From the NCBI GenBank assembly GCA_961205875.1, contig OY540813.1, forward strand, positions 7,659,001 through 7,723,000: DNA of 64,000 bases, read 5' to 3'. The stretch's first letter is position 1. Each line of letters opens with the position of its first letter. Below, piece by piece: positions 1 through 42,600 of the stretch. The notes under the pieces were generated by a model that was not told the DNA's origin, searched no databases, and saw nothing but the letters and a program-made list of their open reading frames with translations. The position numbers and the translations under genes are program-made. This stretch comes from Sialis fuliginosa (Eukaryota; Arthropoda; Insecta; Megaloptera; Sialidae).

Positions 1-3000
1 GACAGTTCTTCTAAACTTTAGTCGTTTATTTTTAGCAAATTGAAGGATAAAAATGGTCGCCGAAGGAAATTACATATACATTAGTGTATGTGAGTATGTG
101 TGTAACAATGACGATACATTTACGTTTTGTAATTTAATAAACCTTACCGTATTCAATTACCTCGTCATAAATTTTCATTACGGTTACTTTAAATTGTCAG
201 TTTAGCTGAATCTGGTACATACACGTACGTGTACAATATCCTTTAAGATACAATTCAGATTTACCGTAAAATAGTTTCAGAAAATATTCTTGTGTGTTCA
301 AAATTGATTATTTCATAAATGTATAAATTGTAGAGCGGGTAGATGCAAATAAAATTTCTTCTGTTTGGCGTTATATTAAATACTTTGAAACTATAAATTA
401 CAGAAACTTACGTGTCAGTTAACAGTTAAAGAAGAAATTAAGAAACGAATGTGGCCACTACAAGATTTTATTAGAATTCTGTCCTGACAGGCACAGGGCC
501 AACATGCATTCCGTACTGCGTCTCCCGTTTCTACATTTTGTACGTGTATGCGTTTCAACAACATACGTTGCAGGTTCGTTATTTTTACAAGAATTTTTTC
601 CGACCCACAGTTTTCCAAAAATCGACGCGAAATTAACAAAAAAATTTAAAATAAAAAATGGGGGGGGGGAATTTTCTGAACTGCCTAAGGGCACCGAATT
701 CCTAAATTCGGGCCTGTATGTACATTGTACGTACATATGCACAATTTAATATATATTTTTAAAAATCAAATAAGTACCATATATTTATTTGTACCTATAT
801 TATCACTAACAATAAGTTCATTTTTATTTTACCCATTTTTGTCAATATTATTATCATTAGATACTTTCAAACTTTATTTACATTTATTACATCTGGTGGG
901 TTTACTGAATATGTATTGAAATTATATATAACTTCTCGTAAAGTTATTTTATTATTACATTAAAATGATAGCGATGTTTATATAGCACTTACTAAATCAT
1001 TCATAATCTAAAACAATTACAAGCTGCCAAATAGAAGCAGATTAATAGAAGTTTTCCTAGATTAAAATTGGATCAAAATATTTACACATTTTCTGTTATA
1101 AAATGAAATGAAACAAAAGATTTTTATCATCATTCCGTTGATAAAACAAAAGTTTTGTAATTTTATAAGGCCCATTTTAATCTTTAGAATTTTGTTTTGA
1201 ACGTGTTAATCAGAACCTAAATAAATATTGTTTAAAAGTTTTACTAATAAACATTCTCAAAGCAAAGTATACAAATGTTTTTTTTAAACTTTCTCCATTA
1301 AAATGTTTTGTCAAGTTCAACATAAATAGCATAGTTACCAAAATGACTAAATTCATTTTTATTATTGAATTTCTAATTAACTTGATGAGCAAACAAATTG
1401 ACAAATAACAGGCTGTCTGTGACGAAACGTTGACCGATAACACGATCAAACCGACGCGGCTTACACCCGGAAGCCAAGATCCATATTAGGATACATATTA
1501 TAAATATATATAAATCTGAATTTCACTAAGCTTTTTTTTAATGTTAATTTTGTTCTTAAATTTTATTAAAACTGATAGTGAAAATTTATAACGATATAGG
1601 GGACTAAATAATAATAATAATACAGAATACATGGATTGGTTTCTTACTCAGGTTTTAATTTATTTGATGTTTCCCTTAAGTGTTCGTAACTACCTTACTG
1701 TTCCCTACATGAAAAGTAATGAAAATTGGAAATAAAGTGAGGGTGTAAAAGTAATTAAAAACAGTTTTGAAGCCTCATCCATTTGCTTTTATTTGTTCTT
1801 TTGTATTTGTAATGAAAAAACATAGTTATAATTGGTATGTGGAGCTAAAAATTATGAATTTAATAACTCAATAAGAATAAGTATATTTTTTAACATTTTC
1901 AATTACAAAAAACTTCCCATTTATAAATTTCGTATTGTATATACTATAAATTGGTATCTAGCGGCACACCTGTTAGGAAGCTCTGATTTAAAGGATATGT
2001 TGAGTGAAGTACATAATGTATACATTATATATACATATACATACATACTAGATTCTCTACTTTACTTAATATACATTAATTATTGCGACGCGTGCTTATT
2101 GCAACTGTACAACTCTACAGAGAAGATTACAGTCTAAAGTAAAGTCAACTTCAATGGAAATTAAGGGCAAACTGTGTAAAGTGTACAATACTATAACTCC
2201 AAATTTTCGAGGAATGAGACAGTCTGAAATAGCCTGAAATAACAATGAAATCGATATTAGGAGTTAGTACATGCTGATTACTTTACATAATAAACACGCC
2301 TAAATTTAATTAAATCTTAGGTATAAGTTATCTTGTATCTATGGTAATATAACTACAACTTTAGTAGAAAAAATTCACAGTACGTTATTTGAATAATATA
2401 AATCGGGTTGCTCTGAATTTAAACCAAGTATAGAGCTTACGTATTTTAAGGTGCCAACTTATTAAATAGTCGAGAAAATTGATGTTTTAAAATAGTACTT
2501 AAATAGAGTTTTTTTTTTGTTAATAATGGTAAAATATCGATAAAATTTATAAAGATGCTCCACTATAGGCGATCAGGAGCAGAATTTTTTTTTTTAAATT
2601 ATAAAATATACTAACAATTTTAAAGTTAGTAAATCTACTGAGAACAATAATATAATGCTCATTAAAAACAAAAATCAAAACAAACAAGTATTAAAAAATT
2701 TCCCCCTCCAAACTAAGAAACTATTGTCCGATTTTTACTTTTTTATACATACACGAAATGTACTGTATAATAAAGTATAGTGATCATGAAAAATTCTAAC
2801 TCAAGATTATTTATTAAAAAAAAAATGTATAATAAAATATATATATATATTTTTTAATTTTATTTCAAATGGTTCATAACAGAAAAAAATTTTTATAATA
2901 AAAATTGTAGAGAACGTTATTTTCTATAATTTATATCGTATTCTTTTTTGTATCTTTTATGAATTGATCAAAAAATAATAAGTTTAGTTTTTATTTAAAA

Positions 3001-7237: not shown

Positions 7238-7304
7238 TCGACGTGGCTTACACCCAGAAGCCAAGATCCAAATCAATATCACCGCGAAAGCCTCAAGACT
7301 TGTA
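7238..7304 (+). repeat. Fragment of dispersed hammerhead-like repeat (copy 2, tail only)
   Basis: It shares GTGGCTTACACCCAGAAGCC and ends GAAAGCCTCAAGACTTGTA, the same 3' tail found in inverted orientation at 41165-41198 and 24540-24570. This marks a conserved repeat terminus. Confidence 0.8.
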
Positions 7305-24539: not shown

Positions 24540-24710
24540 ACAAGTTTTGAGGCTTCCGCGATGATCTAGATATGGATCTTGGCTTCTGGGTGCAAGCCGC
24601 GTCAATTTGATCGTGTTATCGGCCAACGTTTCGTCACAAATTGCAGTGGACATCTTCAGGGCTCTTCTCCACGGTCAAATTGGCACGGCATATACCCAGA
24701 AACCAAGATT
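24540..24710. repeat. Dispersed hammerhead-like repeat (copy 3), two copies head to head
   Basis: 24540-24660 is a full minus-strand copy from tail (CAAGTTTTGAGGCTTCCGCG) to core (GTTTCGTCACAAATTGCAGT; GGACATCTTCAGGG). It is followed at 24673-24710 by a plus-strand partial copy (GGTCAAATTGGCACGGCATA; CCCAGAAACCAAGAT). This is the same inverted arrangement as at 41165-41387 but more diverged. Confidence 0.85.
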
Positions 24711-25729
24711 CATATCTCTATTATTAGTGTCGAAACCATACGTATAATTTTTTGCAGTTTGTTAAGTATATTATTCCAGAACTAAAAAACGGACATAAAG
24801 TTCATAGTTTAATGTAGTTTTATTACGTTGAGTGTCATTTGGCAAAGTGACAGTTAATTTAAAGTAAAAACTACTATCTACTTTACATATTTATTTGTTT
24901 TGTGCGCTTTGCCAAAAAAGATTCCAAAATCTAACGTATAATATATTTTTTATAGTAGGTACTTCATTTTAAAATGTAAATATAAATATATAAAAAGGGT
25001 AAATAAATCTTTTACTTCAAAGAACACTTTTTTTAAATCAGAGCAGAAACAAAGGCCGGAAGTAGGATCAAATGTCCAGTGACAATGCAATATACAATAA
25101 TACCTATATCTAATTGTTCTAAATTATGGCGGATTAACTTTTTCTTCATAACCCCCTTGACATGGGTATCATATAAAAGGGTTTGACGAGCTTTTATTTA
25201 ACTTTACCTGTTAGTATGTTAGATCGTTAGTCAGTCAGTAACTAAAAATTTGAAAATAATAATAAATAAAAAATATATATATTTTTTTAAACAAGCTTTT
25301 ATTAATTATGTACCCAAATGTAAAAAGAATCAGCTATCACAAAATTTGCAGAATGTATGGAAAAAATATCTTGTGAATTGATATACTATAAAAGGGTAGA
25401 AAATTTGTACATTTCTTAAATTCATTAGTTTAATTAATATTTGCCTTTATAAAGCCCTACGCTTTCATTGATTTTAGTCATACAAATTTACAAATTTTAT
25501 GATATATGTATATATGATAAAATAATAATCATACACTTTGAGATATTTACAATATATGTATGTACCTACTATTATGATAACATATACTTATATAATGCTT
25601 CCTCTATACTTCGTCTATGGCGAGGAAGTAACATATATAAATAATGGTATCTTGGTATATTTGATAATAGAATAATAGCACAGTCAAAGCGTCGTATAAA
25701 ACAGGGCAACCATGCATTTTTGGTAGGCA

Positions 25730-39600: not shown

Positions 39601-42600
39601 ATACATTTCCATGATAGATGCAATGTATGGATTACAAAAATATACTCATAAAGCCAAAATTGTATTTATGAATTTATGTATATTATTGAAATACTTGAAT
39701 ACATAAAAATGTATATGTATAGGTACAAATATACATAATTAACTTCCCATTAGGAAGTTATTGTAATCGGTCCGAAAATCAATATAAAAAATTTCTGTTG
39801 GGGTAAAAAAGGGTGCAAAAGTTTGTGTGGGTAAAAATATTTTTTTGGTCGGATTTACTTGAAACTTAGCATGAATAAATATTCTACAATACAAAAATAA
39901 TGAAACATATATTTCAATACTTTTCATACGTGCCTAATAATAGCCATTGTAGGGGTAAAAACCACCCTCAAAATTTGAATTTTAAATACTAATAAATACG
40001 TTTACTAATTTACGTTGCCTTGTAAACAAACGCGAATTAACTAAATTCATAATACAAAAGTGATTTTTATTTCTGACAAGTCCTATTAAAAATTTTTATT
40101 TACATATTAAAAAAAAATCACATAAACTATATGGAAACAATAAATAATCAGAATTCAAGTATTTATAGTCATACCATGTTGAGAAGCTGGTTGTGTGGAC
40201 CTCAAGGATTGAACTCATGGCTTGTTTCAAAATGTTTTTGCGCCATAAGATTTTTATGGAAACATGTTTTTTTATCATTATGTAATAGGTTGAAAATTAT
40301 ATGATATTTGAACTGAATAAAGATTAAACAACGCAATATCTACACTACAAGAGGATGAAGTCCAGCTGACAAGAAAACCGCGTATAAAAAATTGAATATT
40401 AGAATTTGAATAAAAAATTCATGAGTTCCAACTTTTTATATCAAAAAACTTTTAAAATCTCACATAACAAACTTTTTATTAGTTTTCTTATGTATTCAAA
40501 TCTATTATAACTACTTTTATTAAGACGTAATTTAATATAAATAACCTTTAAAAATTCTTCTACTTTTTCCATTTGTTGATCGGAGCACTTTTGTGTATTT
40601 TATAGTTTAATTGTACATATATACTGGGTGGTCTATTTAACGTAACAACCCTTGACAACTTTTTATGGCGAGGTCTTATTTGTATATATACATATATGTA
40701 TTTTTTTTTTAATTAACATATATTATAAAGGTTAAGATTTCGAAGAAACGCGGGTAAAGCCGCAGAAAATTTATAGTCTGTAATAAATGTACCTATACTT
40801 ACAATAGGCCATTAAGTAATTCTGCAGATCCTTCATTATAAATGAGAAAAAGGGTAAACAAAAAAAAATTCAAAAATTATATTATATTATAGTAATATAT
40901 TTTTTTACAAATATTTATCGTAATGAAGTTGTTAATCATATTAAAATTTTGTAATTAATATTTCATTAGGGTATAAAATATGTCAAAGAAATTGTTAATA
41001 AAATAATTAATTGATTTTATTTGAAAACCGTCAAATTATATTTCCATATTTTCCGGGTTATTAATTAAATTCTATAGAACATTATTACATATTTAATTAT
41101 TTGTGATAAATAAAAATTGTTACGTTGGTAATGACTTATCTAACACCAAAAATGCATACCTTTTACAAGTCTTGAGGCTTCCGCGGTGGTCTTGATATAG
41201 ATCTTGGCTTCTGGGTGTAAGCCGCGTCAGTTTGGTCGTGTTATCGGCCAACGTTTCGTCACACATTGCAGTGGACATCTTCAGGGCTCTTCTAAAAGTG
41301 CCTGAAGATGTCCACTGCAATGTGTGACGAAACGTTGGCCGATAACACGACCAAACTGACGCGGCTTACACCCAGAAGCCAAGATCTGCATACCTTTTAT
41401 TTATATTCATGGCCAAACATTTCTTATTAAATTCCCTGGTGAACAAAACCTAATTAACGAATACAATAATTACAATAGCGACATACATAATATTAATAAA
41501 ATATTTTTTTTCAAACAAGATAATTAATTAAATAATTTAAAAATTAAATAATTATAAACCATAATTTTTCGAAAACCGAGATTATAATGAAATGTTAACA
41601 AATATTTTTTCAGGCATTGTTTTCATTCCGCAAATAGAAGAATGTATTTGGGAGTTTCACATTAAAATAAACATTGTAATACAATATATTTCAATTCCCT
41701 AGTTGACGCTCCACCCTCTCAATTTTAGTTTAATGTCTATATATAGAATGTGTTCTTTGATAACTTATTATACAGTATGTCTCGTAAACATATCGACAAA
41801 CTTTCAGGAGTTGTAGATGACATCAAAACAATCGCTTTTTGCTTATGAACATATTATGTCCATAAATGAGCTGTTTCAGCAGTAGAGTAAAAGAAATTAA
41901 TTTTACCTTTTGTTGTAATATCTTTTATATGAATAAAATGTCAAATAAATAAAAATAAAATTTATTATCATATTGAGGATATTATATTAACATATTAACA
42001 AGATTTTATTTAGCTTTTTCAATCTTCAATTTTCAAAAAGAACGAGGTTTTGTTTCTGTACGGCGGCCAACTTTACTAAAAAAAATGTTTATTCATTAAA
42101 ACAAATTAAATATATAAACGTATTATATTGGTATCTTTAAAATCTTCGTTTAACAAATTTAAAAAAATCGTAATTATTTCATTCATATAGAAAACTAGAT
42201 CCAGTAAATTATTACTAATTAAAATGATTACTCAATCAGTTTTTAATAATTATCAGCAGATTATAAATTAGCAATAGTAGGTACTAAGGGCTTTAGAAGT
42301 CGTCTACCACCATAACAACAGATTCGACAATATTAAGACAAACATCATCGGTTATCTTTTTCTAAGGCGGAGCTTATATAGTTATATCATTTTAAATAAA
42401 AACACAAATATACGTCAATTTCATTAATTTATTTTATATCAAGTTTAATATATTATTATTTAAATAATAAAATTCGGAATATCAAATATTTATCGCCACA
42501 AAATTTACGTATAAAATTTTCAATAGATTACATAATAATTTAATCGCACAAATATATATGAGTACTATAAACGAAGAGTACTTCTTAATCTAGCAAATGA

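What the first reader, a model, noticed from the sequence alone, without database searches (positions are those of the whole stretch)
41301..41387. CTGAAGA ... hairpin ... GAAAC core resembles a hammerhead ribozyme, as carried by Penelope-like retroelements
Seen: CTGAAGA, then a bulged hairpin GTCCAC-loop-GTGTGAC, then GAAAC, repeated at 24.6 kb and partly at 1.4 kb. Known: hammerhead cores (CUGANGA and GAAA around stem II) occur in terminal repeats of Penelope-like elements, which often sit as truncated, inverted copies. Inference: this family may be a Penelope-like terminus or a retrozyme-like non-autonomous element. I could not find a clean stem III plus cleavage triplet, and there is one extra base next to stem II.
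Basis: partly seen in the sequence, partly recalled or inferred. Interest (0 to 1): 0.72.

Follow-up and report, generated by a model that had tools for sequence, protein, structure and literature searches.

The report
Penelope retroelement palindrome with hammerhead motif
The sequence is a small two-headed copy of the starting end of a Penelope-type jumping gene, including its self-cutting RNA motif, and copies like it appear to record how such elements insert themselves.

Summary
Window 41166-41386 is a head-to-head palindrome of the 5' region of a Penelope-like element (PLE), flanked by an identical 13-bp target duplication. The motif is a PLE-type minimal hammerhead: core, 3-bp stem I (kept only in the left, minus-strand copy), bulged stem II, and ACGU plus a UH site instead of a closed stem III. 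The extra base beside stem II recurs in related motifs. The 39-nt motif has 2570 genomic sites within 3 mismatches. Longer copies join it to PLE reverse-transcriptase and GIY-YIG coding sequence.

Beyond the finding: every head-to-head element with two readable ends (52 of 52) has one arm ending near +84 and the other near +113 from the ATG. Both target cuts favour TT at the second and third base after the cut. Arms usually share their source, inner ends cluster at a TATA-spaced site, and none of 119 lies at +27 to +31, around the predicted ribozyme cut. This fits target-primed copying of both strands from uncut mRNA with two internal start sites, one per strand. The parts are known for PLEs; the strict one-plus-one rule may be new. 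Self-cleavage was not tested.

The parts
41153..41165 (.). target site duplication, left copy (TGCATACCTTTTA, 13 bp)
   Evidence: identical to 41387-41399
41166..41198 (-). tail: 33 nt present only in this arm, between the two inferred reverse-transcription start sites
   Evidence: outer end at +113 from the ATG; the other arm stops at +80
41199..41285 (-). tail arm, part shared with the other arm
   Evidence: 87 nt, 100% complementary to 41301-41387
41247..41287 (-). hammerhead motif with stem I GCC/GGC, bulged stem II, GAAA, ACGU and UH site
   Evidence: core match; stem I 3 bp for this sequence; minimum-energy fold has both stems
41174..41278 (-). open start of the PLE reading frame, 35 aa from the ATG inside CTGAAGATG
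   Evidence: no stop inside the match at the 150 best-scored places, out of 6347 first-look candidates
41286..41300 (.). head-to-head junction, about 24 nt upstream of the ATG in the left arm
   Evidence: 15 nt between arms; inner ends cluster at -24/-23 in the sampled copies
41301..41386 (+). no-tail arm; hammerhead core without its own stem I 5' strand
41387..41399 (.). target site duplication, right copy
24541..24716 (-). more diverged copy of the same kind: tail arm with hammerhead, and a truncated no-tail arm
   Evidence: ends +113 and +85 (W24); only 6 bp of exact duplication, a longer imperfect one read by eye
1418..1481 (+). fragment of the unit with a no-tail end
   Evidence: W1
7240..7304 (+). 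fragment of the unit with a tail end
   Evidence: W7

Best explanation
The element is a short insertion made by a Penelope-like RT-endonuclease from the 5' end of its own mRNA. The endonuclease cut both target strands about 13 bp apart. Each free 3' end primed reverse transcription inside the start of the reading frame, one at about +84 and the other at about +113. Both copies often ran to the 5' end of the mRNA, about 31 nt downstream of a TATA-like box, and were joined head to head. The hammerhead lies between the mRNA start and the RT start sites and was not cleaved in the template. Shown here: anatomy, fixed outer ends, similar base preference at both cuts, source variants mostly shared by the arms, link to PLE coding sequence. 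Inferred: two primed strands, one RNA template, the mRNA start, the joining step.
For: PLE link: the hammerhead unit is just downstream of the PLE C-terminal frame; pieces of that frame match the L037 frame (E 1e-38 and 1e-54), which has RVT_1 and, slightly under the cut-off, GIY-YIG, while its relative L035 has both over the cut-off; RVT_1 at E 7.9e-7, just under the cut-off, in L071. Outer ends: tail with no-tail in 33 of 33 two-ended elements among 39 loci not chosen for the tail, in 17 of 17 among 25 further loci, and in 2 of 2 two-ended among 4 window places. Target: T at the second and third base after the cut in 30 and 35 of 47 (tail side) and 30 and 29 of 46 (no-tail side); tail arm left in 23, right in 24. 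Same source: arms agree at +49 in 40 of 42 elements; 21 shared variants against a shuffled mean of 4.4, maximum 11 in 1000. Inner ends: -28 to -18 in 67 of 119 arms, 0 of 119 at +27 to +31 around the predicted cut at +29. Second family F2: 6 of 7 resolved pairs mixed; inner ends -12/-10 most often, 31-33 nt below its TATA box. In vitro a lizard PLE cuts and extends both strands and starts at two internal sites that bound the tail (PMC11167929, main text read).
Against: No RNA data: the mRNA start is inferred from a TATA-like box and the ends. Shared variants fit fold-back copying of one arm from the other, or later gene conversion, equally well; 76 variants are in one arm only, 2 of 42 elements differ between arms at +49, and of 13 variants seen in exactly two arms only 3 join the two arms of one element. 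In vitro the lizard PLE showed no difference of start site between strands (PMC11167929), so the one-plus-one rule is not predicted by it. One F2 pair (L096/L097) has two no-tail ends; its outer flanks look unrelated by eye, so it may be two insertions. 6 of 39 and 8 of 25 loci did not have two readable ends. 52 of 119 inner ends lie outside -28 to -18, and three lie at +32 or +33, near the predicted cut.
Confidence: 0.72

Rival explanations
1. Self-priming: one cDNA or antisense copy folds back near its end and copies itself, giving the head-to-head repeat.
For: Proposed for rotifer Penelope palindromes (PMC3846280, discussion read). Arms share variants. Many junctions hold the self-complementary TGCA.
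Against: A fold-back copy has no evident reason to stop about 30 nt short at one fixed place; outer ends fall near +84 and +113 in 52 of 52. Truncation falls about equally on either arm (17 tail arm longer, 16 no-tail arm longer, 19 about equal), and both target cuts show a similar preference.
Confidence: 0.15
2. A palindromic master element with unequal ends is copied whole, so the pattern was inherited, and junctions changed later by deletion of the unstable centre.
For: Seven of 52 elements share the -24/-24 junction; perfect palindromes are prone to central deletion (general knowledge).
Against: 42 distinct junctions in 52 elements; a much longer palindrome with the same two ends (L070, 608-bp arms); a second family shows the same plan with other sequences.
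Confidence: 0.1
3. Non-autonomous retrozyme spreading through hammerhead-processed circular RNA.
For: Small size, type I-like hammerhead core, thousands of motif sites.
Against: 33 of 39 unselected loci are inverted, not head-to-tail, pairs (a direct pair does occur, for example C1:19582883 and 19582965); no arm starts at +27 to +31; the unit belongs to a PLE with coding sequence.
Confidence: 0.03

Closest known systems
Penelope elements of Adineta vaga with pseudo-LTRs, inverted pLTR and optional tail (PMC3846280, passages and discussion read)
   Same: RT + GIY-YIG frame, pLTR with TATA box reaching into the start of the frame, inverted pLTR, 31-bp tail, short target duplication
   Different: Most sampled copies here are reduced to two inverted frame starts; the tail is on exactly one arm in every readable F1 pair, where the paper calls it optional on one of the inverted pLTRs
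PAc, Poseidon element of Anolis carolinensis (PMC11167929, main text read)
   Same: Frame starts at stem II of the hammerhead; two internal RT start sites bounding a 30-40 bp tail; RT start at 111-118 nt of the frame; both target strands cut and extended in vitro
   Different: PAc prefers cutting at 5'-ATT-3'; here TT follows one base after the cut. PAc showed no strand difference in start site
Minimal type I hammerheads of PLEs (Cervera and de la Pena 2014; Lunse et al. 2017; seen only as cited in PMC6155905 and PMC7761336)
   Same: Core, stems I and II, no closed helix III, found in pLTRs, thousands per genome
   Different: An extra base between A9 and stem II in the motifs compared here; whether those papers report it was not seen

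Membership tests
Penelope-like element (PLE) | One frame with reverse transcriptase and GIY-YIG endonuclease | tested here: met
   F1 frames in L070/L071 are broken. L070 pieces match the L037 RT-endonuclease frame at E 1e-38 and 1e-54 (Pfam of L037 and L035); RVT_1 in L071 just under the cut-off. Pfam GIY-YIG itself did not score on F1 pieces; GVY...YIG is visible by eye
Penelope-like element (PLE) | pLTR: 3' end of the frame followed by a repeat that holds promoter and frame start | tested here: met
   L049, L069, L070 and relatives; promoter function itself not tested
Penelope-like element (PLE) | Inverted pLTR, tail extension, short target duplication | tested here: met
   exact duplication most often 13 bp (13 of 39 and 8 of 25 loci)
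Hammerhead ribozyme (PLE minimal type) | Core CUGANGA, GAAA and UH cleavage site | tested here: met
   CUGAAGA, GAAA, ACGU-U; core and UH were part of the search pattern
Hammerhead ribozyme (PLE minimal type) | Stems I and II pair in different families despite different sequences | tested here: met
   22 of 24 pairs in each stem over 8 motif families, stem II with one base skipped (11 of 24 without the skip); 0.0002 and 0.0008 of all 40320 permutations do as well. Strand limits were set by eye
Hammerhead ribozyme (canonical) | Closed stem III | tested here: not met
   Only ACGU lies there, self-complementary, so pairing between two molecules is possible (sequence)
Hammerhead ribozyme (Rfam models) | Reaches an Rfam hammerhead score | tested here: not met
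   No hammerhead hit in the window or at this element, nor at the F2 PLE hammerhead, so the models seem not to cover this kind
Hammerhead ribozyme | Self-cleavage | not testable with these tools
   needs an RNA assay
Retrozyme | Head-to-tail repeats with hammerheads | tested here: not met
   33 of 39 unselected loci are head-to-head pairs; the other 6 have one arm or one readable end
Retrozyme | Circular RNA | not testable with these tools
   needs RNA data

The most novel reading that the evidence does not exclude
PLE insertion obeys a one-plus-one rule: a symmetric RT-endonuclease dimer cuts both strands at the same kind of site and uses the two RT start sites of a single uncut mRNA once each, one per strand. 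Head-to-head PLE structures would then be the normal product of insertion, not an accident of self-priming, and the hammerhead would act at another step than making the template.
Probability: 0.45. Interest if true: 0.72.

Novelty: new member of a known kind. Interest (0 to 1): 0.5.

Why it matters
How PLEs make their inverted, tailed structures is open in the papers seen: self-priming on an antisense template was proposed in 2013 (PMC3846280), and priming on both strands was seen in vitro in 2024 (PMC11167929). This genome holds many young palindromes whose ends, target duplication and source variants can be read, so the two models can be told apart by counting. It also bears on what the PLE hammerhead is for, called still a mystery in PMC7761336: in the sampled copies the template seems not to have been cut at it.

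Tried and rejected
Rfam gave nothing at the gathering threshold; the permissive search gave only below-cut-off matches, the best of them microRNA models that fit any long palindrome, and no hammerhead for a second PLE motif. Pfam and NCBIfam on short F1 pieces gave no GIY-YIG match; sub-threshold hits to unrelated families (ABC_AB, STI1-HOP_DP, DUF6498, DUF3854) were taken as chance, and the link was made by comparison with L037. A place with a 215-aa frame (L068) looked like a chance extension, not a parent. No intact F1 parent was seen: the rows with 70% identity or more lie in frames of at most 488 aa, and that one has a stop. A CGGAAR-like motif before both RT start sites in three families was seen by eye, but it lies in coding sequence and may be protein conservation; not used. 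First-look candidate numbers (781, 6347) are not copy counts and were not used as such.

Limits of the counts. In one search an element counts as two-ended only if a minus arm lies left and a plus arm right, so the 52 are head-to-head by definition; the result is the mixed end types. Loci without two readable ends: set A 6 of 39 (L012, L013, L049, L050, L058, L060); set B 8 of 25 (L047, L076, L077, L079, L082, L083, L086, L087); window 2 of 4. Set A holds the best-scoring, young copies. In one search, 5 of the 52 had exact duplications under 9 bp and were left out (L025, L054, L055, L057, W24), and one more on the no-tail side. The first base after the cut (G or T in 33 of 47 and 30 of 46) is biased, because the longest exact duplication cannot be followed by the element's own first base; only the second and third bases are relied on. 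In one search, L103, L104 and L105 were unresolved, and ten single F2 places were not fetched. In one search the L032 motif was not included because the pattern excludes it; skipping a base in stem II pairs better in 7 of 8 families and equally in F2.

Full report
The motif and its setting. CTGAAGA...GAAAC is present at 41302-41335 (+), 41251-41284 (-) and 24626-24659 (-), with none in 100 shuffles. The whole element, 41166-41386, is flanked by TGCATACCTTTTA on both sides. The 39-nt hammerhead sequence occurs 2570 times within 3 mismatches, control 0.

The hammerhead. In the left, minus-strand copy the RNA would read AGAGCC-CUGAAGA-U-GUCCAC-loop-GUGUGAC-GAAACGUU-GGCCGA. Its minimum-energy fold has stem I GCC/GGC and the bulged stem II. 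In the right copy the junction removed the 5' strand of stem I, leaving 1 bp. There is no closed stem III: ACGU, which is self-complementary, takes its place, with UU as the likely cleavage site. Minimal PLE hammerheads without helix III, which may cleave as dimers, are described (PMC6155905 and PMC7761336, passages seen; the 2014 paper was not held, and the 2017 paper was not looked up). Stem I also keeps 22 of 24. Of all 40320 pairings of strands between families, 0.0002 (stem I) and 0.0008 (stem II) do as well. Not all 8 families were shown to be PLEs. Rfam finds neither this motif nor the F2 one.

The parent. Copies with longer arms carry upstream sequence (L049, L023, L065). In L069 a 120-aa frame runs into the same region; its relatives, among them the places of L049 and L070, are. 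L070 is a head-to-head element with 608-bp arms and a 13-bp duplication; its frames match the 640-aa frame of L037, which scores for RVT_1 and, slightly under the cut-off, GIY-YIG; the related L035 frame is over both cut-offs. L071 holds an RT piece at E 7.9e-7, just under Pfam's cut-off. So the unit is the pLTR and frame start of a PLE. The ATG lies in CTGAAGATG, as in the lizard element PAc, whose frame begins at stem II (PMC11167929). No intact F1 parent was seen.

The one-plus-one rule. Set A is the 39 loci, outside the window, found with a query that stops before the tail. Of these, 33 have both outer ends readable, and all 33 have one end at +74 to +94 and one at +105 or more. Set B is 25 further loci: 24 taken in list order from a search for the tail arm, and L070, taken as a long copy though in the same list; 17 of 17 readable are mixed. 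Of 4 window places 2 are two-ended and both are mixed (all). Set B by its choice cannot show pairs of two no-tail arms. In a second family, F2, ends are +82 and about +116 to +120; 6 of 7 resolved pairs are mixed, one (L096/L097) has two no-tail ends, and three were unresolved.

Cuts and source. Oriented on the tail arm, the second and third bases after the cut are T in 30 and 35 of 47 elements on the tail side and in 30 and 29 of 46 on the no-tail side, where other positions have 12-24 (tail) and 13-23 (no-tail); the tail arm lies left in 23 and right in 24. The first base is mostly G or T but is biased by the way duplications were called. At +49, where C and T lineages exist, the two arms agree in 40 of 42 elements. 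Shared variants number 21 (11 of them at +49) against a mean of 4.4 when partners are shuffled; 76 variants are in one arm only. Of 13 variants seen in exactly two arms, 3 join the arms of one element. The two arms of an element thus mostly come from one source, most simply one RNA; fold-back copying or later conversion would also do it.

Inner ends. 67 of 119 arms end between -28 and -18 from the ATG, with -24 and -23 most common, and none ends at +27 to +31, around the predicted hammerhead cut at +29; three lie at +32 or +33, where alignment ends are uncertain by a few bases. Position -23 is 31 nt below TATTTAA, read from L049. In F2 the inner ends of short pairs, most often -12 and -10, lie 31-33 nt below TATATAAA. 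The template was thus probably the uncut 5' end of the mRNA. This agrees with the lizard element, where hammerhead mutants did not change insertion in vitro (PMC11167929).

Models. Head-to-head palindromes of PLEs were put down to self-priming on an antisense template in 2013, with sense templates not excluded (PMC3846280, discussion read). Fixed and different outer ends, the similar cut preference, truncation of either arm (17, 16, 19 about equal) and 42 distinct junctions in 52 elements fit two primed strands better. The tail on one of two inverted pLTRs is already in print as optional (PMC3846280), short 3' extensions are noted in a curation guide (PMC8969392, passages), and the two start sites that bound the tail are described (PMC11167929). 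That exactly one arm carries it, insertion after insertion, I did not find in the held library; the PLE papers of 2014 and 2021 were not held, so this novelty is unsettled.

Noticed in passing
L032, 2949 (+) and 215 (-): A further hammerhead-like family with GAAACACGTGTC, a longer self-complementary stretch where stem III would be, and no ATG at stem II.
   Followed up: no
G000:C14, mostly the first 7 Mb (lists): GIY-YIG and PLE pLTR matches are crowded on contig C14, including similar sets at about 0.30, 1.08 and 1.17 Mb that look like segmental copies.
   Followed up: no
L071:1811-2323: A frame resembling a Copia-type polyprotein end (by eye) lies beside the broken PLE copy.
   Followed up: no
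L092-L100, L104, L105: Several family F2 copies sit in (TA)n tracts, whereas sampled F1 copies sit at AT-rich sites with duplications most often of 13 bp.
   Followed up: partly
window 7240-7304 and 1418-1481: Single-arm fragments of the same unit, one with and one without the tail.
   Followed up: partly
three PLE families, before both RT start sites: A CGGAAR-like motif precedes the two RT start sites (by eye); could be a start signal or protein conservation.
   Followed up: no
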